Assembly (NCBI GenBank): GCA_950295325.1
Contig: OX485808.1
Coordinates: 21,472,527 to 21,536,526 of the forward strand
Direction of reading: 5' to 3'
DNA from: Polytrichum commune
Lineage: Eukaryota > Streptophyta > Polytrichopsida > Polytrichales > Polytrichaceae
DNA length: 64,000 nt
The notes beneath the pieces are model-generated. The model saw only the letters and a program-made list of their open reading frames with translations. It was not told where the DNA came from and did not search any database. Of the stretch, positions 1 to 59,060 are shown piece by piece (within the stretch, counting starts at the first letter, position 1; every line of letters starts with the position of its first letter). A program made the position numbers and the translations under genes.

Positions 1-464
1 AACGAAAGTCCTCCGTGCATAGTGATTTCAGTGGTCATTCCAAAGAAGCGAGGTCTGGAGAGTAGGGGATGCATGTGAGACCTAGCGCTTTGCGCAGATG
101 GTCTTCAATGGCCAAGGAATTCTACACCAATCAGAGTCCACACATGTGTTTTTGTTGAACACCCAGCGGGTAGTGTGGGAACCTTCATTTAGGTGTCTTG
201 GGAGATGTCATGTTCGACGTGTTCTCAGCAACCCCGTCGGCATTGTGGACACTAGCGGTGACATGCACACATTTGATTTGCACGGTATGGATGCATCTTC
301 AAGGAGGCACACACTTAGGCAGGTTCAATGGTGGACTCTGCGAACATTGACAGCAAGGGTGGCGATGTGTGTGGGCTAAAGCTAGGTTGCTGTGAGTCGT
401 GGTTGCTACACGACCCTCAAAGTATCTTCAGCGGGCGTTTTAGGGATTGCAACGGGGGAGCCAT

Positions 465-3400
465 ATGGGCTCGGCGCAGCGTCGAGGTGCAACCATTCGT
501 GTCACTGAAGATGGTCGCACGCTACGCCATGTGCCTATTGGGGACATCATACTTCACACGGAGTTGCGCGTGGCGACGGAGCATAATGTACGATCATTTA
601 GGTGTCCTTGCAGAGAATGCAAGGGTGGTCGCAGGAAAAGCATCCAAGTCATAAGACAACACCACACGGCGGTTGTTCGCGATCCATTTCTGCGTAAGTC
701 TTTACTAGGCGGAGACCCCCCAGAGGGCTATCCACCGGGTGGAATGTGGATCGAGGACATCTGTTGTGACAACGATGTCATAGAAGACATCCCAACGGAC
801 ACAACACGTGTTCATTTGGACGTTGACAATGGAGGAGTTGACGAAGAACAACCACCCCCCCTCCTGGACGAATTCCACGAGGTCGAGCGGCAAGTGCTAG
901 AGGCCAAGGACGAAGGACCCTTACATGTGGAGGACGAGGAAGACATCGACATTGAAGACGAATTGGACGGTTTGTACACGGAAGCCACCACGGCATTGTA
1001 CCCGGGCTCAAAAATGAGTGTAGTGTCAGCTACAATCATCATCATGAACATGTGCTCGGTGTTCCGCGTGAGCAACACATTCACTGACGAGTTGTTTCGT
1101 TTTTTGTCGGGTGATTTGTTGCCAGTGCCCAACAAATTGCCAAAAACTCATTATGCGGCTCGGAAGAGCATCCGCCGGCTGGGTTTGAACTACAATAACA
1201 TCCATACGTGCCCCAATGGCTGTATTCTATTTGACGAAGAATATGCAACACTGGATGTATGTCCGAAGTGCACGCAAAGACGATGGATAGATGGCAGCAA
1301 CAACATTGCCGTGAGAGTAATCCGACACTTCCCCCTAATTCCAAGGTTCAAACGGATGTGGCCCTCGTCTGAGATAGCGCGTCTATTGACAGGCCACACC
1401 AAACACGTCAGTACTGACGGCATCATGCGTTCAGTGGTCGACAGTCCGGCATGGAAGCACGTCAACTCGGACATCGCGTTCGGCAATTTTGGACGTGACG
1501 ACCGGAACATGCGACTGGCTCTAGCACTGGATGGGGTGAATCCTTTCAAGCTAAGCAACACCAACTGGTCAACGTGGCCGGTGTTGATTCTGATTTACAA
1601 CTTCAACCCATGGTTGGTGACCAAAAAAAATTTCATATCATTGTGCATATTGATTTCAGGAAAGAAGTCGCCGTCCTCTGCAAATATTGATGTGTTCATA
1701 CGTCCACTATTGAAGGAGCTCCAAGAACTTTGGCATGGGGTGGAAGCACTAGACTTCTCACAACCGCGGGGGAATCGCACTTTCACCTTGCGTGCCTTAC
1801 TTATGTGGACCATTTCCGATTTCCCCGCATATGGTCTCATTTCTGGTCTTACTTGTAAGGGCTACAAGGGGTGCCCTTGTTGTGGACCAGACACGGATGC
1901 GAGGATGGCAAAAACAGGGGACATGTTACCAAACAGGAGCATTAGGGGCTCCAAGATTGTATACGGAGGCATTCGTCGATACTTACCACGACACCACCCG
2001 TATCGCCGCAATAGAAGATTTAATGACATGCAAGAACACCGTCCGAAGCCAAAGGTGATGACGGGAGGGGATGTCATTCGGTATGCAGCGTGGCGCGAAT
2101 CATACCTACAGATGGGTGGGAGAGAGAACGGACCCAACGATCCTGTGCACGCCACAGGTGTGAAACGATTGAGCGCTTTGTACGAGCTGGATTACTGGAA
2201 GGTGAGGCCTATATGTCACTCCATGTTTGGCGTTCGCGTTCAATGACAATGTTTAAGTAGACACATCGCCTGCAAAGCCAGACGCGTATGACGGAAGGAC
2301 ATCCACAACGACGTCTGACGAGGTTTATGATGTTCTTGTTGGACATGGTACCCGGAGGTCTTATAGGAGTTAGCGTGCACTGCGTTGGCTTTACATTGAT
2401 GGTACATGTCATGTGTCTTGTGCAGCATTTGCTAGAACGGCACATCCTCGATGTCATGCATTGTGAGAAGAATTTGTGCAAGAACATATTGAAGACTCTC
2501 TTGGGCATGAATGATAGTCCCGGAAGCAGGGTAGATGCTGAGGACATGGGCATCCGCCAAGAGATATGGTTGCAACCCCCCCGGCGAGAACGTGATGGGT
2601 ACTATATGCCGCATCCTCCCTATGTATTCAGGGCAAATGAACGCACACAATTTGTGGGAATCGTCTCCAACATTCGGACACCCACAAACTACGTTGGTAG
2701 CATTCACAAGCGACTTGCGGATGGCAAATTGCAGTACATGAAAACACACGATTACCACGTTCTGATGCAGCAGGCAAGCTTTCTCAAATTCTAGTACGCC
2801 ATCCTGTATCAATGCGGCTTAGTTGTGAAGGCGGACAGCACTTGACGTCATACAAACGTGGTTGAGGTGAGGTCGTCCATGTAGACGTTCATCGGACAGT
2901 GCTCCAACAGCGATGCATGCTTATCGTTGTGTTTTGGGTGATGTCTGTCAGGAGGAGACACAATGTCAATCTGAACTACAATGTGACGCATGATGTAGAT
3001 TTTACCTTTGGCTATACGGAACATACTAGACAAAAGCGTGCACGTTGCTATAATTAAAATGAGCAGAGTTTTCCAAAGACTTTGCGCCAAAGAGGTGAGG
3101 GAAGGAGACGCACAGATTATGATGTTGGACGTGGTGATGGCGACGTGTGTCTTGGAGAAAGAGTTTCCTCCGACATTTATGAACGTTATGACGCATCTTC
3201 CCGTGCATTTGGTGGAGCAATTGTTTACGTGCGGTCCAGTGCACTGTCGGTGGATGTATCCAATAGAATGATACATGAAAACATTGAAGGACTATGTGAG
3301 AACACTTGCACATCCGGAGGGCAGCATAGCGGAAGGTTATCAAATGGATGACACGCTAGGTTTTTGCACCGAGTACATGCATCAGTACAGAGGAACAACA

Positions 3401-4623
3401 CATCGGGTATGGGATGTTGAAGAAGACGCAATCATGAATGATGAGATTCTCCGTTGCAACGCACAATAAAAGCGGAAGATGTCCGATGAGTTCCGCGAGT
3501 ATGCACATGCATTTGTTTTGGACAACGCCTCTTCCTTGGAGACTCACCGAGAGTGAGTGGAACCCCTGAACATGTGTCCATGCCTCCATGTTTTATATTC
3601 CCTGGCATGCTTTGGTCACCCTGAGGATGTGTTGGAGACGGTGTCCCTTGTGACACCGGTATTGACAGAGACCGTTGCATCTGATATACGTGTTGATGTG
3701 CAATCTTGTTACGCGTTCATTTTTATTGCTTATGAGGTGGACACACAATCGCAATAACTTGACACTTGGTTATTTGTAGGGAATACATGGCGGCTAGAGT
3801 AGAGCGCTGGAAAGAGAGGGAGGAATTTCAGCGCATGTTTCGCCGCCGCCATCCTTCCGTGGCAGTGCGCTACCCCTCGGAACTGCAGGATCTACCACGT
3901 TTTGCATCATGGTTGACGTCGCGGCTGACTTTTCAACGCCAGGCAGGCGAACATGTCGACGATGATGTCCTCCAGTACGCGCAACCTCCCGAACGATATG
4001 CTATCTCACACCGGAAAATGTATGCATTTGGCATGCACTTCCGGGTCCGTAGCACTGAGGGCAGCCTCGTCACGCGTGATTCATGTGTTGTGGCCTCTTT
4101 CAGACGGCAAGTACCGTGGGGCTTACGAAATGGGGAACCCATAGAGACAACCGAGGAGTATGTGGGTTACATTGAGGAGATTTTAGAGTTGGACTATAGA
4201 AACCATTGCACGACTGTGCTAGTATGCGATTGGGTCCGCACAAGCCAGGATTCTCGACATCCAAACATCGAACGGGATCGGTATGGCTTCACTGTTGCCA
4301 ACTTCAACCGCATGGATGGCAAAGTGCACTCAAATTCTTTTGCATTTCCATTGCATTGTCAACAAGTCTTCTTTTCCAACGACCCGACGAGGCCAGGATG
4401 GAAGGTTGTATGTCGAATGGACGTGAGGGGTAGACGCGGAAAACTACAAATCGACCACCCTATGCCAAACATAATAGATGTGGGAAACGACGCTGACTTC
4501 TTGGGTTTACAGCCACGGCTGGAAGACGTGGAGCCCACTAGGGAGCCTGCAACAGACGGCGGGGTGTACATCCCAGCAGCAGCAGACGATCGTGGGCCAG
4601 AAGACCATGAAGAAACACAGTGA
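465..4623 (+). pseudogene. TNP2-like CACTA transposase gene, four exons, two in-frame stops
   Basis: The exons read 465-2201, 2426-2773, 2999-3552 and 3780-4623, about 1160 codons in one continuous frame once introns are removed. Introns 1 and 3 are GT-AG; intron 2 begins GC (CAGCAG|gcaagc). Order of domains: a Transposase-associated region with FRCPCRECKGG near residue 45; the TNP2 core (LALALDGVNPF, WTISDFPAYG, CKGYKGCPCC; after intron 1 HILDVMHCEKN and HDYHVLMQQ); a DUF4218-like part (EFPPTFMNVMTHLPVHLVEQ, GPVHCRWMYP); and a DUF4216-like C-terminus (YIEEILELDY, DRYGFTVANFNR). Two nonsense codons, TGA at 3269-3271 (within the conserved WMYP-E-[R]-YM motif) and TAA at 3467-3469, break exon 3. 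No frameshift is needed, so inactivation looks recent. The start is uncertain: 465 is the first ATG after an upstream stop at 441, and a further 5' exon may exist. Confidence 0.9.
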
Positions 4624-8900: not shown

Positions 8901-9421
8901 CATGCAACCCCAACCTCACTGTGAGCCCAAAATGGCGCCCACATGTGTGGTTAACTTCAAAAGTTATTTGGAGTTGGTCCTTTTTTATTGTGATTGCTAT
9001 TTCAAAATTGAAAAGAGTGTAACCCTTGGGTTTAGTGTGTTTTTGGGTTAACAAGTGATTTACGTCATTTGTATGTTGAGAGAGGGTTAGTGTTAATTAG
9101 ATTTAGTTAAAGTAGTGGTTGTTAGTACTTTTGTTTTTAGAAAAGGGGATGTGAGCTAGGGAGCTTAAGGCTGGGATAGGTGTCCGAATTAGGCGTGGAG
9201 GCTGCCCACATTGGGATCGGGGGTTGGTTGGATTAGGTTGTAGCCTTGTCCGAATTAGGTAAGTGGCAAGCTTGCAGGGCGTGAGAACTCGGAATCCTCG
9301 GAATGGATCAGCATCGAGATAGGCAGTGGCGGCAGCCGCTAAAAATTCTTTGGCTTCTCTTTTCGTTTCTCTCCTTTCGAAGTCCCTGGAGCGCTGAGGC
9401 TGGCTCCGAAAGAAGGCGAGC

Positions 9422-9751
9422 TAGGATTGCACCCTGGTTTCGAGAGAGCTGAGCTGGGATTGAACCCTGGTTCGGAAGAAGGCGAGCTGGGATTGCACCC
9501 TGGTTCGGAAGAAGGCGAGCTGGGATCGCACCCTGGTTTCGAGAGAGCTGAGTTGGGATTGCACCATGGTTCGGAAGAAGGCGAGCTGGGATTGCACCCT
9601 GGTTCGGAAGAAGGCGAGTTGGGATCGCACCCTGGTTTCGAAAGAGCTGAGATGGGATTGCACCCTGGTTCGGAAGAAGGCGAGCTGGGATCGCACCCTG
9701 GTTTCGAGAGAGCTGAGATGGGATTGCACCCTGGTTCGGAAGAAGGCGAGC
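9422..9751 (+). repeat. 33-bp minisatellite, 10 units of two alternating types
   Basis: Ten consecutive 33-bp units. Type A contains CCTGGTTCGGAAGAAGGCGA and type B contains CCTGGTTTCGAGAGAGCTGA; the order is B A A B A A B A B A. Because 33 is a multiple of 3, several frames on both strands stay open as 11-residue peptide repeats (on the minus strand LLPNQGAIPAR-like). I treat these open frames as a consequence of the repeat and not as a gene, as there is no supporting start context, splice structure or recognisable domain. Confidence 0.9.
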
Positions 9752-10293
9752 TGGTGTGAGGCCAAACCCACCACCCTTAGGTGTCCTAGTCCGGGTGATG
9801 GCTTTGAGAATCACACTCAATTCCTAATACCATAACGTGAATTGCTATATGGCTCTCATGTCCAAGGCACTAACTTCATCTTAACTCACTTGCTTTATTA
9901 TTGTGAGCATCGTTGCTCGTAGTGGAATTCGATTTCTCAAGGGTCCAACCCGCGGCCTTGGCCACACATGCCCTTAAAGAGATCCCTCTAGACTTCTTGA
10001 TTTTTACTTCCTTTATCTTGTCCTTGCTAGGATCCTCCACAGTCTCCATTAATTGTGCATGTAATATATTCCAACCAAAAAGTACGAGTGTTTAAAAACA
10101 CTTGCCTCAATGGGTAACCATCAACACATTTTAAAAGTCCCACACACTTCTACTTTCCTAATAAATCCAACTCTACCTAAAAACCAAGATGGCATGCAAG
10201 AATCTAGTATGGTCTAGCAATCCCAAAAGGGATTATCCTAACTACAACCCCCCTAGTAGCCTAACTTATTAGATCTAACGAACTAACTTAAGC

Positions 10294-21868: not shown

Positions 21869-22152
21869 CTCCCTCCGTTCCAAAATGATTGTCCTACCTT
21901 CAGGATTTTTTTGTCCCAAAATAATTGTTAGGTTATCCGCCAAGTTAGTAATTTGAGGCTCAAAGTCAAATATCTATGCGCCAAACTTTCCTCATCGAGA
22001 AGTCTTTCGATACCGCAACTTCCAAGGGCGGTTCGGAGTAGTTGTTGTTTTCTATTTTAAGAGTCGTACTTACAACTATTCGGTCAGTGGTCAACGGGCC
22101 TTAACCCTCACCAAAGTTAGGAACACAATCAATCATTTTGAGATTGAGGGAG
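21869..22152. mobile_element. Stowaway-like MITE, 284 bp, TA target duplication
   Basis: It starts CTCCCTCCGTTCCAAAATGA and ends with the inverse AATCATTTTGAGATTGAGGGAG. TA flanks both sides (21867-21868, 22153-22154). CTCCCTCC termini with TA duplication are the hallmark of Stowaway (Tc1/mariner-type) MITEs of flowering plants. A related copy lies at 58828-59060. Confidence 0.9.
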
Positions 22153-47096: not shown

Positions 47097-47338
47097 GGAT
47101 CTCTGTATTTTAGTGCTATGAGGGTTTGTAGGACGTCTCCCGCGGGCAGCCCGTTCCTGTCCTCCCGTCCCGACCCGTCTTGGCCTTCCTGCCCGAGTCC
47201 TCCATCTTGCCTGACCCGGCCTTCCGTCCGTCCATCCGTCATATCCGTCTCCACCACCCCCCCACACCAAACCCGAGCTCTCTCATTCTTCCTTGCTTAC
47301 GCCACTGGACAACTCCGGAGTGAATGAGGAAGTTGGAG
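47097..47338 (+). repeat. Left TIR of the MULE
   Basis: GC-rich over most of its length (CCCGCGGGCAGCCCGTTCC, then CCTTCCGTCCGTCCATCCGT, then GGACAACTCCGGAG). It aligns end to end with the reverse complement of 55282-55523 with small indels. Confidence 0.93.
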
Positions 47339-49019: not shown

Positions 49020-52000
49020 TTATCCTTCCAAGATGGCCAAATGAGATGCGCCACTGTCTCTTCTACTCCATGCGCTCAGCTTGTCACTGTAAAATTTCAT
49101 GGAGGACCCATTCATGTCCTTCATCGCTTGAACCATATCTACTGGCACAGTTGTCCAATCGCCTGCCCAATCCAACCACCCTAGCGCATACTGAGTGTCA
49201 AAAGACTCTCTAAGTAGCATCATACGGCAGAACGACTCAAGTGCTTCATTTCGCTTGTCCTTTGACGCGTCTGACCACATGATACGAAGATCATCATCTT
49301 TGTCCATAGCCAACATATCCAAGCAGACGTTCCAGAAACAAGTCCTCATCCAGGACGAGGCCTCAGCCTGCATAGCCTCAAACCCATTGCATGTCCTCAT
49401 AACTTCCAAGTATACCGCAAAATCCTGTGAACTAGTATCCATAGAAGGAAAGAGAAGCTGACCGAACGTCAATAAATCCTTCATAGCCAACTTCACATGT
49501 GCCATCCTTTCATGTTCGAGACTAGAAGACACTCCCATTCTAGGACAGATCAATGGTGCTTTCACACCATTGAAATGACGACAAAACAATTTCAGAGCTC
49601 TCACGAAAGGAGGAGGATGAACCTTCCTCTCTGGACGTCTACTTTCTGCTCTCATCCACGTTAGAATATCTTGGAACTCTTCCTCATTGTGTTGGCATGG
49701 CAGCTGTAAAAAATCAAAAACTGATTTATCTAGGAGCCTTAGATGCAACGGTGACCAAGACTACACTCGAGCCTCCGCCTCTAGAATTAACTCTCGGTCA
49801 TACCTCTCAAGCCCTTCGGTGTCGCGCACCTCTCCATGAGGAGTGCCCAAAACACCATGGGCACAAGGGGGACCCCGGAGTGACACCCGGGACTTGTGGC
49901 GCCGTTGGTGAGAGGGCCCAAGTGATCCTAGTGTGGGTGAGGGCCCTGGGCGTTGGGAACGCCTCCCACCCACGGAGACTAGGAGGCATGAGGGTAAGGC
50001 CATGAGCTATGCGTAGCTCATGGCGCGGTGATTCTAGAATGCTCAAGAACACCTCAATCGGAGGTGTGAGCTAGGAGTTATGGCCAGTTGAGTGGGGCGC
50101 TGTCCCGGGACAGAGCCCTGGTACAGCAGTGCCTGGGAGTGATTCCCGGGACTGCCAAGGTTCAAACAGGCACAACTTCCTCAAGACTTGCCCGAATGGG
50201 GCAAGTGAGGAGTCCATCGGCATCTACGTGAAGCGTAGATGAAGATGCAGTGGTTGGTTGGTATGTTCAGACATCATACAAGGAAGTTATGATGGTCTGA
50301 AGCTGCTGGGGGGTTCTAGGCCCAGCAGCTAAAGGAAAATGTCCACTTGGCCCCAACTCTTGGTAGAGAGACAAGAGGTTGGTTGACGGTGGGGTAGGGG
50401 CCCCGCGTAAAGTCCTAGAGGCTTATATGGGTGAGGTGGTGTGGCCTCACCCACCCGAGGCCGAACGGCACGGCCTCCATGGGCATTGGCCCAATGTGAG
50501 GCCATAGTTGCCTAGTATGGTTCGGGTTGTTGTAGTGTTGCTCCGGCAACGCGATGATCAACATAGGATTGGACTTCCATGGATGGAAGTCCACATCTAA
50601 GGAATGGGTTACCGATTAAGGGGTGACTCCCGAAAGCAAAGTAGGAGGGTTGGTTCCCTCCTATGAGCTATATGGTCCGGGGTAGGAGGAGCTAACCATT
50701 AGCATGGCGGAATGCGAATGATTAGCGCTCGTAACCTTTACTAGAATTGAAAATTGGCAAGATTGTCAAGGGGGGCTTGCAAGGGTTGCGACATTCGGCA
50801 ACATGTGTTGTCCTATTCTTCTTCAAGTTAGCCAAAGACGCTTGCCAAGCATCTAGTAGCCGGTTGTAAACATGCATATCAGTCTGATATTGAATAAATG
50901 CGGCGATCTCACCTTTTATGAGATCCTCGTCTTTCAAACGGAATGCTTCCACACACCGTTTCACTGCCTTCTATATTGGCATTGGAAGGTTGTCCTTTAA
51001 GTCACAACATCCACAAGTAAGTCTAGATAAGAGAAAAAAATCATGGACAATCACAAGTAAATCATTCTAAGGCATTTTTGTGCACCACGTGCGGCTGGGG
51101 TTTTTTTGTTTTGGGGCTATTTACCTTCAAGGGCTGAATTAAAATCTCCCTATAATTACTTAAATTTTAAAAATGGCCCATTTATTTGCACCCTTCTATT
51201 ACTTATATTATCCAAATCACTGCAATTTTTTGTATTCTATATTCTTTTTAAGTAATTTTGGACAGACGAAATCCCAATATCATCCATCCCCGTGAGTCCT
51301 AAAGCCATTTACATACCATACTAAACATACCTTCTAGGATCCTTGTCTTCAGCCCCTATATTAATTTTACAAAAAAATAAGTGCCCACGTTTAATGTTCA
51401 TCTAACTTACTTATACTGGGATTGTCTACATTTAATAGTCCCTTCATTATTTGGAATTTCTTTATAATTTTTATTTCAAATGATTTTAATCCTCTCTATA
51501 TTATGCCGCACGTTGTTCTTAAAATGTACTAAGTGATCTACCCGTGTGGACAACACATGTCCTAGTCCAATAATGTAAGAAGACATTATTGAATTTTACC
51601 TTGATTTCAAGGTCCATGGAGATTGCCCCCAAGTATTGAAGACCTTCCTGTCCAATAATCCATTTGCATGCAAAGTTAAAATTGTGTCATTGGACTTATC
51701 TTTGCAATGCAGAAGCTCCAAATGGATAATATCACATGTCTGCTCAACTAGGCTATGTAGACCAAAGATTTTAGATGGTTTCTTTGGCGATTTTCCAAGG
51801 TCGGTGTCTGGAAACATTTCTATCGCCTCTGTCCACAATTTCCTTGACAATTCGCGCCTAGGGTCCAGTAGAAGAGAAGGCCTTGCATCCGCAGGTTTAG
51901 ACAAACTGGTGGTCGTCATGTTCAACCGTGGAAGCATACTGGTTTTATTTGGAGACATGGAGGGATTCCGATTGACCGAATCTTGAAGTATAGAACTTGG

Positions 52001-53593: not shown

Positions 53594-54268
53594 AGTACAT
53601 TTTGTGACTTCCGTATCACCCAAGCGTCTCCTGTAATTCCACAATAATGCAACCCTTCGTGCCTTCAACACAACTTTCTACTTTCAAAGCAATTGAAAAG
53701 CCACATGAACCTGCTAAAATTGACTAATTGGTAATCACTTTGCAACCAAAGTAGAGGGAAAACCCACGATTCTCAGCTCCCGGTCTCTGTAAGAAGGATC
53801 TAAAAGGCCGAATCCACTACCAAATTTTGGATTGAGGGTTTCAAGTGCAGAAAGGTTTAGGGTTTAAGAGGAAACTAAGCTGGAGGACCATCACAGACCT
53901 GTTATTGCCTCAAACTTCCATCGGCTAGACGCCGATAGTCCCTCTAGGAAGTTCGCCGCGAAGAATCTGATTCTTCGCGTAACTAGTTAGCAGGCTGAGG
54001 TCTCGTTCGTTAACGGAACTAACCAGACAAATCACTCCACCAACTACGAACGGCCATGCACCACCACTCATAGAATCAAGAAAGAGCTCTCAATCTGTCA
54101 ATCCTTACCTCGCCTCCCTATCCTGGCCTTCCTCCGCTGACTCGCCTCCCTCCCTCCGAATGTCTCCCTCCCTCCGACCTCGCCTCCCTCTGCCCGCTGT
54201 TAATGGCAGGATTTGCAGGAAGTGAATAAAAAGGCGGAGAAGAACATGAAAGCCCGTCAAGTGGCGAT

Positions 54269-55131
54269 GAAGTTTCGAGCCAGAGAGACGTGCACAGAAA
54301 CACAAAAAGAAGAATCTTTGCAAGCAAGTTTTGACAAGGCAGGTGTTCAACAATGAAGGATTTGACAACCTGGAGATTGCTGATCCCCTGCCGAACAAGG
54401 GACTGAACTACAATACTTGCACATTGACTTATGAACCTCCTCCTTCGAGTGTTGACTCTCAAACTCGTGGTCTTAGTGCTGCTGCTGCAGGGTGCAGTGA
54501 CAGGTATGGAGTCACTGGCTATCAAACTTCCCAAGTGGATCCTCGAGTCTATGTTGCCACTGAAACTCCAAGATCACCAATGATGGCACCAAGGTACAGA
54601 GATGGTTCAGTAAGAGGTTCACAGCCTGCTTACAGTGCAGAAAATGTGGCTTTGGCAGATAGCTTGGCATCCTCTCACCCTATCCATCATCAGATGGACC
54701 TCAGTTTCAATCCCATGAGTCTTGTAGCCAAGAATGCTAGAGGATCTCACATGCAGTTCAAATCGATGCCACCAGAGTATGAGAGCCAAAGGCTAATGGG
54801 AGAACAACGGGGTAAGGGTGTGCACATCCCACTCAAAGAAGATTACTGCTTAGGGTTTAACAAGAAACCGAGTTCTTCGCCTTCGAAAGCACCTGTGAAA
54901 GTGGACATGGACATAGCAGAGGGACTTGGTGTGCAAGCCAAGCGGTTTGAGGATTCAGCTATGGCGAGATCCTATGAGCTTAGACAGCCATGGGCACAGT
55001 TCCATATGCCCGGGAGGCTTTCAAATGTGGATGCGTCCATGGTCAGGTGTGAGAGGATGCCTCCGATGCTGGAGAGCAAGGGTTCTTTGCAAAAGATGCC
55101 GACACGTGACAAAGGGGGTAATTGCTCTTGA
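54269..55131 (+). other. Long open frame in the MULE, likely captured host exon(s)
   Basis: After a stop at 54268 one frame stays open for about 287 codons to the TGA at 55129. The first ATG in frame is well inside, so this reads as an exon or exon fragment rather than a complete gene. The protein is hydrophilic with an early basic run (QKHKKKNLCKQ), then Ser/Pro-rich parts (YEPPPSSVDSQ, KKPSSSPSKAP). It has balanced codon use, unlike chance AT-rich frames, and no domain I recognise. It ends 150 bp inside the right TIR. A Pyr-rich block at about 54105-54195 resembles the inner margin of the right TIR (both contain CTCCGACCTCGCCTCCCTC), so the open frame sits between two TIR-like margins, the layout expected of a Pack-MULE capture. 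The donor gene is unknown. Confidence 0.55.
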
Positions 55132-55281
55132 AATGAAGAAGACATGTCTGCACATCCCGAATGTGAGTGGAGGGAAGGGAGGAAAACCTAATAAACCGTT
55201 GGGAAGTGGTGGGGAACATTCGGTTCCTGCCTCCGACCTCGCCTCCCTCCGCTCGCCTTCCTCCTGCCGCGCTCCAGCAGC

Positions 55282-55523
55282 CTCCCAACTTGCTCACTCG
55301 CTCCGGAGTTGTCCAGGGGCGTGAACGAGGAAGAATGACGGAACTCGGGTTTGGGGTGGGGGGGGGGTGTTTGGTGGAGACGGATGGACGGACGGAAGGC
55401 CGTCCCGGGCAAGGAGGAGGACACGGGCAGGTAAGACGGGTCGGGGCGGGAGGACGGGAACGGGCTAACGCTGCCCGCGGGAGGCGTCCTACAAACGTTT
55501 GTAGCACTAAAATACGGAGATCC
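55282..55523 (-). repeat. Right TIR of the MULE
   Basis: Inverted counterpart of 47097-47338; immediately followed by the GTGGTTTGAG target duplication. It contains a G-run of about 9 at 55360 that corresponds to the C-run of the left TIR. Confidence 0.93.
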
Positions 55524-56058: not shown

Positions 56059-57978
56059 ATGGCGTCCGATTTAGAATCAGTTGCAAGGAAAATCGAGGGG
56101 ATATGTCGAGGTGGGGGTTTAGGGCCTGGAAGGATGGGGAGGTTGTCAAAGGGAGCGGGAAAAGGGGGTGCAATTGGTGGTGTTGGAATTAGGAGTATGG
56201 AGACACTGAGGAGAAGTTTGTTGGGGAAAGGCTTGGATTCGGTTCTCGGTGGTGAAATTGGTAGTGGTGAGATGTTGAGAAGAAGTTTAGTAGGCACAGA
56301 TGATTTGGGCCTTGGTGATGATATTAGTTCTGGGAAAACAATGAAGAAAAGCTTTGTTGCAAAATTGGATGCAGCTCTTGGTGAGGTTGGGAGTGCGGAG
56401 GCAATGAGAAAAAGTTTAGGGTTAGGGCTAGCCGTGAAAGGGAATTTGTCTCTCAGTGGTAAGATTGGGAATGTGGAGAAAATGGGTAAGAGCTTTATGA
56501 GGAAAGGAGACTTGTCTCTTGGTGGTGAGATTGGGAGAGGTGAGAAATTGAGCAAGAGCTTAGGAGGAAAAGGAACTGCCAGTATTGGGTTTGAGAGTGA
56601 GGAGAAAGTGGAGTACGACTTGGAAATTCCTATGAAGTTGATGCAAGAAGCGGAGGGTCATACCATCATGATTGAGTTCAAGAGCGGTGACAAATACCAT
56701 GGCACGCTTGTCGAGTGCGACGATAGTTGGAATTGCCAGCTTGAGAATGCCGCCTACACAGAGAAGGTGTAAATACACGTTTTTTGAATCAACACAATTT
56801 AGAATATTGATCATGTCAATGTAGCCAATCGCAATTTTATTGCTGTGTGTGTTATATTTGTCTAATTTGGATTGAAGATTCATTTTGTGTCTGCAACATA
56901 TTGTGAAGGAAGAATGTTGTAGAATTATGAGAGTTATCATGCCTTTCTGTTCCACCCACGAGCGTCAATCGTTTTGTGCAAAATTGCTTTTGCGATTGTG
57001 GAAGTCATGAAGATTTGATTTTATGCAAATTGCATTGCACTAATTTCGTTCGAATTTGTAAACTTGAGTCTCTGAAAACTAACAATTGAGTGCAAACAAC
57101 TTGAAAACATTAGTCACTGCAATGCTAGGCCTAGAGTCACTCAAAGACATTGAAGATCAAAGTTCTTTTTTTACAAATATACCTTGTCATCCATGTATGT
57201 CGTTTAACAATAAAGTCTCCTGGCAATTTAACATCAATACTCACTATAGATGGGTTGAGGCAATGAAGTGCATTCACTTTAAAATTTTCAATACTTCATT
57301 ACCAATGAGGAACATTGAGGGTTGGGCAATACACCACTTGACTCGTAAGGTTAGTTGACATGAAAGCACTGTCATCTCATTATGGATACATAGGGTGCAG
57401 GATGGGAAGTCTTTTACCCTGGAAAATGTGTTCATTTGTGGCAGAAAAATAAGGTATGTGGCTATTCACCTTTACTCTTCTTCATACTTCTATCGAATTC
57501 CGAACTTTAATGTACATTAGATCGACTAGGTGTAAAAAAGAGGTTTGAGAGACTGTTGAACTAACTGGGTTAAGTCAGACCTAAATTCTGATGCTATGTC
57601 ATACATGAGAAAGAAGTCCTGGAATGGATGTCAAGCAAAAGATCAAGGAAGATGTTCACATAGCCTATTGTGTTGTGATGAATGGGAATATCTTTATCTA
57701 TCTGCAAATGCCTTTTTTGTCGGCCAACTAAAGTCTACCATCAGAATTCGTAATCCTTTATTTGATGTCCATTGAGGAGTGAATGCTGAAAAACTAATCA
57801 CTGGTGGGCTAGGTTCATAGTTGTTCCTGAAATGCTTCGATATGCTCCCATGTTCAAGGAATCTTATGTCCAAAAGGTACACTTTCAGTCTTTTACGTCC
57901 CCCCATGTTCCCAAGACAAACATATATATCATTATTGATAACAAAAATTACATGAACAATACTAGATTCTTTATGTAA
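56059..57978 (+). CDS. SmD3-like protein with a 189-residue repetitive N-terminal extension, three or more exons
   Basis: Exon 1 is 56059-56766 (donor AAG|gtgtaaat), exon 2 is 57401-57453 (TGCAG acceptor, AG|gtatgt donor), and exon 3 starts at 57813 (GCTAG acceptor). Phases match (0, then 2). Residues from about 190 read as SmD3: IPMKLMQEAEGHTI, KSGDKYHGTLVECDDSWNC, QLEN (Sm1), then after the introns LENVFICGRKIRFIVVPEML and YAPMFK (Sm2). Sm D3 is a core subunit of the heptameric ring on spliceosomal snRNAs. The first 189 residues hold about six 22-residue repeats, consensus LGGEIGxGEKLxKSLxGKG, Gly-rich and basic, with no domain I recognise. Oddities: Cys replaces the conserved Arg of the Sm2 F-I-R-G motif, and no RG-rich tail is seen. 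The 3' end is uncertain: readthrough gives TAA at 57976, but a donor at 57877 with an acceptor at 58026 would give another tail. ATG at 56059 has good context. Confidence 0.82.
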
Positions 57979-58383
57979 GTGAGAATTCTGATTACTTTCT
58001 GAACTCAATGTAAACCATGATTTCAGGAGGAAGTGGAGGATGATTTGTTGTTCTCATTAAGACTTCTCCACTTGACAAATTATTCTCAAAGAATGGCAGC
58101 AGATCTAGACCGATATAATCAGTAATTTACAATGGCTCACATTGCCAGGTGGGGCAAATGAATCATTAACCTGCATTTTGACCTAGATCAATTTTAACTA
58201 CTTGGAAGTATAGGGAAAGTTTTGATCAAGTAACAAGCACACTATGAATCGCAAGCCCTGAGAATTAATTGAGAATGCACGAGCATAAAAAAATGATCTT
58301 GATTGCAACTGAGAACGAGCCACGACAAAAATTTATTATGAGAAGCTAAATTTCTGGACTTCTAATTTAGTTGTTGGAAACCC

Positions 58384-58416
<33 letters not shown>

Positions 58417-58827
58417 TGGGCCGAATACCCCATGTTTTGGGCAATTTTAGAAGTGTAATTCATTCTTATGAGGGTTGTATATAATCTTAAATGTTTTGCT
58501 TCGTCACAAGAAAATAATGGTGTTTCTCTTGTTCCTCCACCTGAGTCTGTTGACGCCTAGAGAAGATCTAGAGTAATGGTTGCATGTTGAATAGTATTTT
58601 GTATTTGATCCAATCATCTTGAAAACATCGAAACTGGAAAACGTTTATTTGCATGGCAAGTAGAGGAATGATGGGGATAAGAAGGTGTTAGCTTTGGAGC
58701 ATCATTGTAGGAATACAAGTAGAACTTGGACCTAGGGCATTTAGATGTTGAACTTTGTACACATGTGCTACTCCAACTAAGGGTGAGATCACAAAACTTT
58801 GTTCAAGATGGTAGTCCTCACTATGTA
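57979..58827. other. Downstream of the SmD3-like gene; no further gene recognised
   Basis: May contain the last exon and 3' UTR of the SmD3-like gene (acceptor-like TTTCAG at 58021-58026, then about 100 open bases to a TAA). A (GTT)n repeat follows at 58384-58416. Confidence 0.4.
58384..58416. repeat. (GTT)n microsatellite
   Basis: About ten to eleven GTT units. Confidence 0.95.
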
Positions 58828-59060
58828 CTCTCTCCCCGCCCCAAAATGATTGTCCTACCCCCGGAGTTTTATGTCCCAAAAAGATTGTTTGAGATCAAAT
58901 GTTTATTGATTTTGTTGATGTAAAAATTGTTTGGCACACCGAATTATTTTGCAATATTTTCTACATCAAAAAAAATAAAAAATAAAAAATAAAAAATATT
59001 TGATCTTTTTGGGACATAGAAACTCCGGGGGGTAGTACAATCATTTTGGGATGGAGGGAG
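58828..59060. mobile_element. Stowaway-like MITE, 233 bp, TA target duplication
   Basis: It begins CTCTCTCCCCGCCCCAAAAT and ends CAATCATTTTGGGATGGAGGGAG, with TA on each side (58826-58827, 59061-59062). The subterminal GATTGTCCTACC and its inverse are shared with the copy at 21869-22152. An AAAAAT repeat sits near its middle. Confidence 0.88.

What the first reader, a model, noticed from the sequence alone, without database searches (positions are those of the whole stretch)
56059..57978. SmD3-like protein with a six-fold repeated N-terminal extension
Canonical SmD3 proteins begin almost directly with the Sm fold and end in an RG-rich tail. Here an Sm1/Sm2 domain split by two introns follows 189 residues of about six 22-residue Gly/Lys-rich repeats (L-G-G-E-I-G-x-G-E-K-L-x-K-S-L), all in exon 1 with the start of the Sm domain. 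I know of no described SmD3 of this architecture. The intact frame over 236 codons and correct intron phases argue against random decay.
Basis: partly seen in the sequence, partly recalled or inferred. Interest (0 to 1): 0.85.

Follow-up and report, generated by a model that had tools for sequence, protein, structure and literature searches.

The report
Divergent SmD3 copy with repeated front
A moss-like plant carries, besides its normal copy of the spliceosome ring protein SmD3, an old and much-changed second copy whose front end has six repeated segments and whose usual tail is missing; it may be a specialised ring part, but nothing yet shows that it is made.

Summary
The observation largely holds. 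Exon 1 (56059-56766) encodes 236 residues: a Gly-rich head (1-38), six degenerate units of 22-25 residues (39-175), a linker, then half an Sm domain; exons 2 (57401-57453) and 3 (57813-57876) complete it. The domain matches SmD3 best. The genome also holds a normal SmD3 on C4 whose first three introns fall at matching places and phases, so this is a DNA-level duplicate.

The Sm domain is old and was constrained: 46 of 80 residues identical, dS 2.2 (near saturation), dN 0.28. The codon aligned with the normal start is GTG, and no in-frame ATG lies between residues 147 and 192, so a whole domain needs part of the extension. The extension has no stop, but its codon usage is not gene-like, a reverse frame is open too, and no relative was found in this genome. 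Best reading: a lineage-specific SmD3 paralogue with a disordered basic N-terminal tether. Expression, conservation and function are undemonstrated; no plant sequence database was available.

The parts
56059..56766 (+). Exon 1 (236 codons): N-terminal extension plus first half of the Sm domain; ATG context cattATGG; donor AAG|GTGTAA
   Evidence: Open frame; LSM domain at residues 194-236; splice site by alignment with the normal SmD3
56059..56172 (+). Head, residues 1-38, Gly-rich, not repeated
56173..56583 (+). Six degenerate units, residues 39-175, each with one x-[KR]-S-[LF] (RRSL, RRSL, KKSF, RKSL, GKSF, SKSL)
56608..56610 (+). GTG codon (Val184) aligned with the normal start codon
   Evidence: alignment by eye with L002 exon 1, anchored on LxIPxKL
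56626..56766 (+). Sm domain, first half (IPMKLM...AAYTEK)
57401..57453 (+). Exon 2: DGKSFTLENVFICGRKI(R); intron 2 in phase 2; the Sm2 R-G reads C-G
57813..57876 (+). Exon 3: (R)FIVVPEMLRYAPMFKESYVQK; donor AAG|GTACAC
58027..58125 (+). Probable exon 4 with stop (EEVEDDLLFSLRLLHLTNYSQRMAADLDRYNQ); no RG repeats and no recognisable match to the normal exon 4
   Evidence: in-frame acceptor ATTTCAG and phase-0 intron as in the normal gene; not confirmed by cDNA

Best explanation
This is an old paralogue of SmD3 that has become a variant Sm-ring subunit. Shown: it is a DNA-level duplicate (introns kept); its Sm fold stayed under purifying selection, on average, while synonymous sites nearly saturated; it lacks the RG tail and the Sm2 arginine; the codon at the normal start is GTG and the frame runs on upstream through a repeated, C-poor stretch. 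Inferred: the start moved upstream, so that former leader or flanking sequence became a coding extension which grew by 66-nt tandem duplication. Inferred mechanism: the protein pairs with SmB through the kept strands and takes the SmD3 place, the last to be filled, in a subset of Sm rings, or holds SmB in an RNA-poor complex; the extension is a disordered basic tether (calculated pI 9.6, against 4.9 for the rest) whose six x-[KR]-S-[LF] sites could be phosphorylated. It would work like LSm11 of the U7 snRNP, an Sm-fold paralogue whose N-terminal extension recruits partners to a special ring. My odds: real old SmD3 paralogue 0.85; extension translated 0.6; ring subunit with tether, as stated, 0.4.
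For: SmD3 chains are the top PDB matches; spliced Sm part scores 59.2 bits with Pfam LSM, cut-off 23.4, the normal copy 67.6. Introns match the normal SmD3 in place and phase, the third within one codon. 46 of 80 identical, pS 0.712, pN 0.231, dS 2.2, dN 0.277, Fisher p = 7.6e-10 on rounded counts; 18 of 34 replacements have BLOSUM62 > 0 against a neutral mean share of 29%, 3 of 2000 runs as high. Extension: 0 stops in frame against 15 and 15, 0 of 2000 shuffles open; unit lengths differ by whole codons; no Met codon between 147 and 192. Exon-1 model: the extension is below pLDDT 50 throughout (single sequence, so weak). SmD3/B joins last, and the tails were left off as nonessential in that work (PMC6954390, passages); the LSm11 extension recruits and stabilises its machine (PMC12774660, abstract and passages).
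Against: No expression or cross-species evidence. Synonymous codon preference of the extension is -0.096, like window DNA taken as non-coding (mean -0.067, sd 0.052, 177 overlapping pieces) and below the lowest of 57 coding pieces (-0.029); frame 0 scores lowest of its three forward frames. Third-position excess p = 0.052; pooled pN/pS among unit cores is only 0.306/0.431 over 15 non-independent pairs. A reverse frame is open too. Neutral runs to 34 replacements stay stop-free in 12%. Loss of the Sm2 Arg and RG tail also fits decay. Ten ATGs lie in the 535 bp upstream, none in an open frame with 56059. Nothing tests SmB or RNA binding.
Confidence: 0.4

Rival explanations
1. The Sm part is a real old paralogue, but most of the repeat stretch is an untranslated, strand-skewed minisatellite in the leader; translation starts at Met142/147, or at Met192/195, giving a short extension or an Sm protein without its N-terminal helix.
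For: Non-gene-like codon usage, C avoidance even in first codon positions (Arg 11 of 12 AGR, Leu 16 of 23 TTR, Ser 14 of 21 AGY; kinase exons 0.49, 0.40, 0.32), an open reverse frame, a 66-bp unit that keeps any open frame open.
Against: No stop and no frame-shifting length change across six diverged units; Met192 would drop the helix that precedes the Sm fold.
Confidence: 0.3
2. It is a duplicate that was once functional and has recently been silenced; the frame has not yet broken.
For: Sm2 Arg lost, RG tail lost, normal start codon lost; a repeat-rich neighbourhood with a 98% copy of C7 sequence 0.8 kb upstream.
Against: Low dN against near-saturated dS and mostly conservative replacements; intact frame and plausible GT-AG sites at all three introns.
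Confidence: 0.2
3. The extension is partly intronic: an unseen upstream exon or an intron inside exon 1 removes much of the repeats.
For: The transcript start is unknown; the frame runs on upstream of the ATG to 56020.
Against: The frame is continuous with the Sm domain; by eye no pyrimidine-rich acceptor is seen before the Sm domain in this C-poor stretch (no splice-site program was run).
Confidence: 0.07

Closest known systems
SmD3 (normal copy of the same genome on C4; SmD3 chains in the PDB)
   Same: Sm1/Sm2 fold, SmD3-type sequence, intron places and phases (the C4 copy)
   Different: 189-residue extension, C-G for R-G in Sm2, D-S-W-N for D-N-W-N in Sm1, acidic short tail in place of the RG tail
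LSm11 (U7 snRNP; PMC12774660, abstract and passages)
   Same: Sm-fold ring paralogue with a long N-terminal extension
   Different: The window sequence is of the SmD3 class; the likeness is of architecture only, and no sequence comparison with LSm11 itself was made
Arabidopsis SmD3-a / SmD3-b (PMC8678131, one passage)
   Same: Two SmD3 genes in one plant, with unequal mutant effects
   Different: [quoted passage not shown] no extension is mentioned there

Membership tests
SmD3 | Sm fold (Sm1 and Sm2 motifs) | tested here: met
   Pfam LSM 59.2 bits for the spliced Sm part
SmD3 | Closest to SmD3 among Sm and LSm proteins | tested here: met
   The 12 best of 33 PDB sequences are named SmD3, then LSm4 and others
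SmD3 | Intron places and phases of the normal gene in the same genome | tested here: met
   First three introns match, the third within one codon; phases 0, 2, 0
SmD3 | Sm2 Arg-Gly facing the RNA (its RNA role is recall) | tested here: not met
   ICG in the window; IRG in the normal copy and in all six PDB sequences shown as alignments
SmD3 | C-terminal RG tail | tested here: not met
   None in the predicted exon 4; in three frames from 57877 to 59000 a single RG and no GRG, RGRG or RGG
SmD3 | Sm fold starts within about ten residues of the N-terminus | tested here: not met
   Sm domain starts near residue 190 if Met1 is used
SmD3 | Pairs with SmB and enters snRNPs | not testable with these tools
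   needs pull-down or structure
LSm11 / U7-type ring subunit | LSm11-class Sm domain (takes the SmD2 place) | tested here: not met
   SmD3 chains are best; no LSm11 or SmD2 chain appears among its 33 matches
LSm11 / U7-type ring subunit | N-terminal extension that recruits partners to a ring | not testable with these tools
   An extension is present in the predicted frame; recruitment is untested

The most novel reading that the evidence does not exclude
A moss lineage has evolved an alternative Sm ring: a diverged SmD3, without the Sm2 arginine and RG tail, carries a phosphorylatable repeated basic tether that was born from non-coding flank after loss of the old start codon, and builds a special class of snRNP or a decoy SmB complex that regulates splicing.
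Probability: 0.15. Interest if true: 0.8.

Novelty: new variant of a known kind. Interest (0 to 1): 0.45.

Why it matters
Sm-ring subunits are among the most conserved proteins of eukaryotes and, apart from the U7 ring, I recall few cases of a ring subunit gaining a long extension. If translated and conserved, this would show how a core spliceosome part can be specialised, and how a coding extension can arise from former leader or flank after start-codon loss. If not translated, it is still a clear case of start-codon loss in an old, constrained paralogue.

Tried and rejected
Relatives of the extension. Protein search of the own genome found only itself and an E = 0.82 match on C6, rejected as compositional after reading its frame; DNA search found only itself. 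With exon 1, none of 71 candidate stretches in genome contigs was confirmed; of 13 in viral contigs one was (33%, E 3e-5 among candidates), but its reading frame is an unrelated short protein that shares the stretch KTMKKSFV, rejected. A PDB match of the extension (3ugm, E 2e-4) sums many stretches of which none is significant alone, rejected. These collections hold hardly any plant sequence, so absence says little about mosses.

Are the units decayed copies of the Sm1 hairpin? Best local score against the normal Sm domain is 38, reached by 15 of 1000 full shuffles and 13 of 1000 column permutations; with the window's own Sm domain 113 and 93, with the human one 60 and 47. Not convincing; left open.

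Shared neighbourhood with the normal SmD3 (four stretches, 39.6 kb, plus L002 and L003): besides the Sm match and its reverse-frame echo there are 11 short matches elsewhere in the window, taken as repeats; no shared gene order was seen.

Exons 2-4 as query found no place in the genome other than the window itself at E <= 10. A MAFFT alignment of two-unit pieces put the units out of register and was not used. The exon-1 model had mean pLDDT 39 and was not used for fold searches. NCBIfam gave only a weak Sm match (E 0.064).

Literature: the one paper holding SmD3, 'N-terminal extension' and 'plant' was seen in the listing only, as were the eight with SmD3 and 'Physcomitr'; in the listings no title or abstract start described this architecture. 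Searches for the species did not identify it.

Full report
Setting. The window is C6:21472527-21536526 of a 408-Mb, 64-contig genome; the family matches listed all lie on contigs C1-C7. A light-harvesting protein of this genome scores best, among PDB sequences with a significant single stretch, with 8htu (482 bits) and 7xqp (480), ahead of 8c29 (447); a longer entry, 9vfj, has a higher total but no stretch that passes alone. That 8htu and 7xqp come from a moss is recall. The genome is therefore called moss-like; the species was not established.

Anatomy. From the ATG at 56059 one frame runs 236 codons to a donor at 56767. It codes a Gly-rich head (1-38), six units (cores at residues 40, 64, 86, 108, 133 and 155), a linker and the first half of an Sm domain. 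TRF sees only the last two units (period 66, 1.9 copies); the others show in protein only. The autocorrelation peak at lag 22 is reached by 0 of 1000 shuffles. Each unit has one x-[KR]-S-[LF].

Origin. The same genome has a normal SmD3 from C4:3589006, 134 residues as I assembled it, with an RG tail. Its first three introns lie after YTAK (phase 0), in KVR (phase 2) and after DAKIK (phase 0); those of the window gene lie after YTEK (0), in KIR (2) and after VQK (0, one codon shorter). It is thus a DNA-level duplicate, not a retrocopy. In the three forward frames from 57877 to 59000 there is one RG and no GRG, RGRG or RGG. The part after residue 187 has a calculated pI of 4.9 against 10.2 for the normal SmD3; the extension has 9.6. 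Both copies of this genome have Trp in Sm1 (DNWN, DSWN) and YTxK, where the six PDB sequences shown as alignments have DNMN and no YTxK; this agrees with a duplication inside the plant lineage, but no tree was made.

Constraint. Over 80 aligned codons 46 residues are identical; an NG86 script gives pS 0.712, pN 0.231, dS 2.2 (near saturation), dN 0.277. Fisher p = 7.6e-10 on rounded counts; 18 of 34 replacements have positive BLOSUM62 scores against a neutral mean share of 29%, with 3 of 2000 neutral runs as high. Neutral runs reached 34 replacements without a stop in 12%, so lack of stops in the Sm part is weak by itself. The constraint is an average over both copies and over time; it does not exclude recent silencing.

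The extension. For coding: no stop in frame against 15 and 15 in the other forward frames, 0 of 2000 shuffles open (the shuffles break the tandem structure, which overstates the result); unit-length differences are whole codons; pooled pN 0.306 is below pS 0.431 among unit cores (15 non-independent pairs). Against: third-position excess only p = 0.052; a stop-free reverse frame; codon preference (-0.096) like DNA taken as non-coding (mean -0.067, 177 pieces), below all 57 coding pieces, and lowest of its three forward frames, though 116 of 1000 composition-matched recodings reach it from a null mean of -0.142 (trained on 28 of 30 kinase loci, the two without a qualifying frame dropped). The Sm part scores 0.042 by the same measure, gene-like. 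C is avoided even in first codon positions (Arg 11 of 12 AGR, Leu 16 of 23 TTR, Ser 14 of 21 AGY). This points to a compositionally biased and perhaps young origin rather than an old domain. The codon aligned with the normal start is GTG (56608-56610), and the in-frame Met codons are 147 and then 192; so a protein with a complete Sm domain must include at least residues 147-189, unless a non-AUG start is used. That is the strongest argument that some of the extension is translated. Ten ATGs lie in the 535 bp upstream, none in an open frame with 56059.

Relatives. No other copy of the extension was found in this genome, and exons 2-4 match only themselves at E <= 10. No plant collection was at hand, so conservation could not be tested.

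Mechanism (inferred). In the studied system SmD3/B joins the five-protein ring last, and the truncated proteins without tails, described as nonessential, still completed the core (PMC6954390, passages seen). The window protein keeps the fold but has lost the Sm2 arginine and the tail arginines that are methylated by PRMT5/WD45 in SmD3 (same paper). I therefore expect SmB pairing with altered RNA contact, and a basic, disordered, possibly phosphorylated tether. LSm11 shows that an N-terminal extension on a ring subunit can recruit a machine (PMC12774660, abstract and passages). None of this was tested here.

Verdict. A real and unusual gene model: an SmD3-class paralogue that does not meet three usual SmD3 features (short N-terminus, Sm2 R-G, RG tail). 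It is best filed as a divergent SmD3-like variant. Interest is moderate because expression and conservation are unknown.

Noticed in passing
window 47097-47336 and 55285-55523: Inverted arms, 81% alike over 247 columns, about 8.4 kb apart; the right arm ends about 535 bp before the ATG of the SmD3-like gene. Perhaps a mobile element with captured gene pieces.
   Followed up: partly
window 54199-55230: 98% copy of sequence at C7:13.46 Mb, where the open frame is longer (582 against 286 codons): a recent gene-fragment duplication.
   Followed up: partly
window 49820-50796: 96% copy of a stretch at C1:27.89 Mb (L004 6435-7412), on the same 10-kb piece as the SmD3 fragment below.
   Followed up: no
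L004 (C1:27886300-27896200): By eye a near-identical fragment of the normal SmD3 (part of intron 1, exon 2, part of intron 2) without a match to exon 1: a recent partial copy.
   Followed up: partly
window 56059-56586: Extreme G-over-C skew (0.61-0.63); 5 of 1272 stretches of 414 bases in the window reach 0.6, all covering this spot.
   Followed up: partly
window 444-4620: CACTA-type transposon genes: Transposase_21 (E 7.6e-63), and DUF4216 just under its cut-off (29.4 of 30.6 bits).
   Followed up: no
window 58840-59050: Palindromic element, arms 73% alike, with short relatives near 21870-21930: MITE-like.
   Followed up: no
window 9308-9823: Tandem repeat with an open reverse frame of repeated 11-residue units (LLPNQGAIPAR type).
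   Followed up: no
G000 C5:1751760-1846160: Cluster of 14 light-harvesting genes with the same family score in 95 kb.
   Followed up: no
G000 C1:62449950 and C1:62455114: Two LSM-domain frames of 329 codons with equal scores, 5 kb apart in opposite directions.
   Followed up: no
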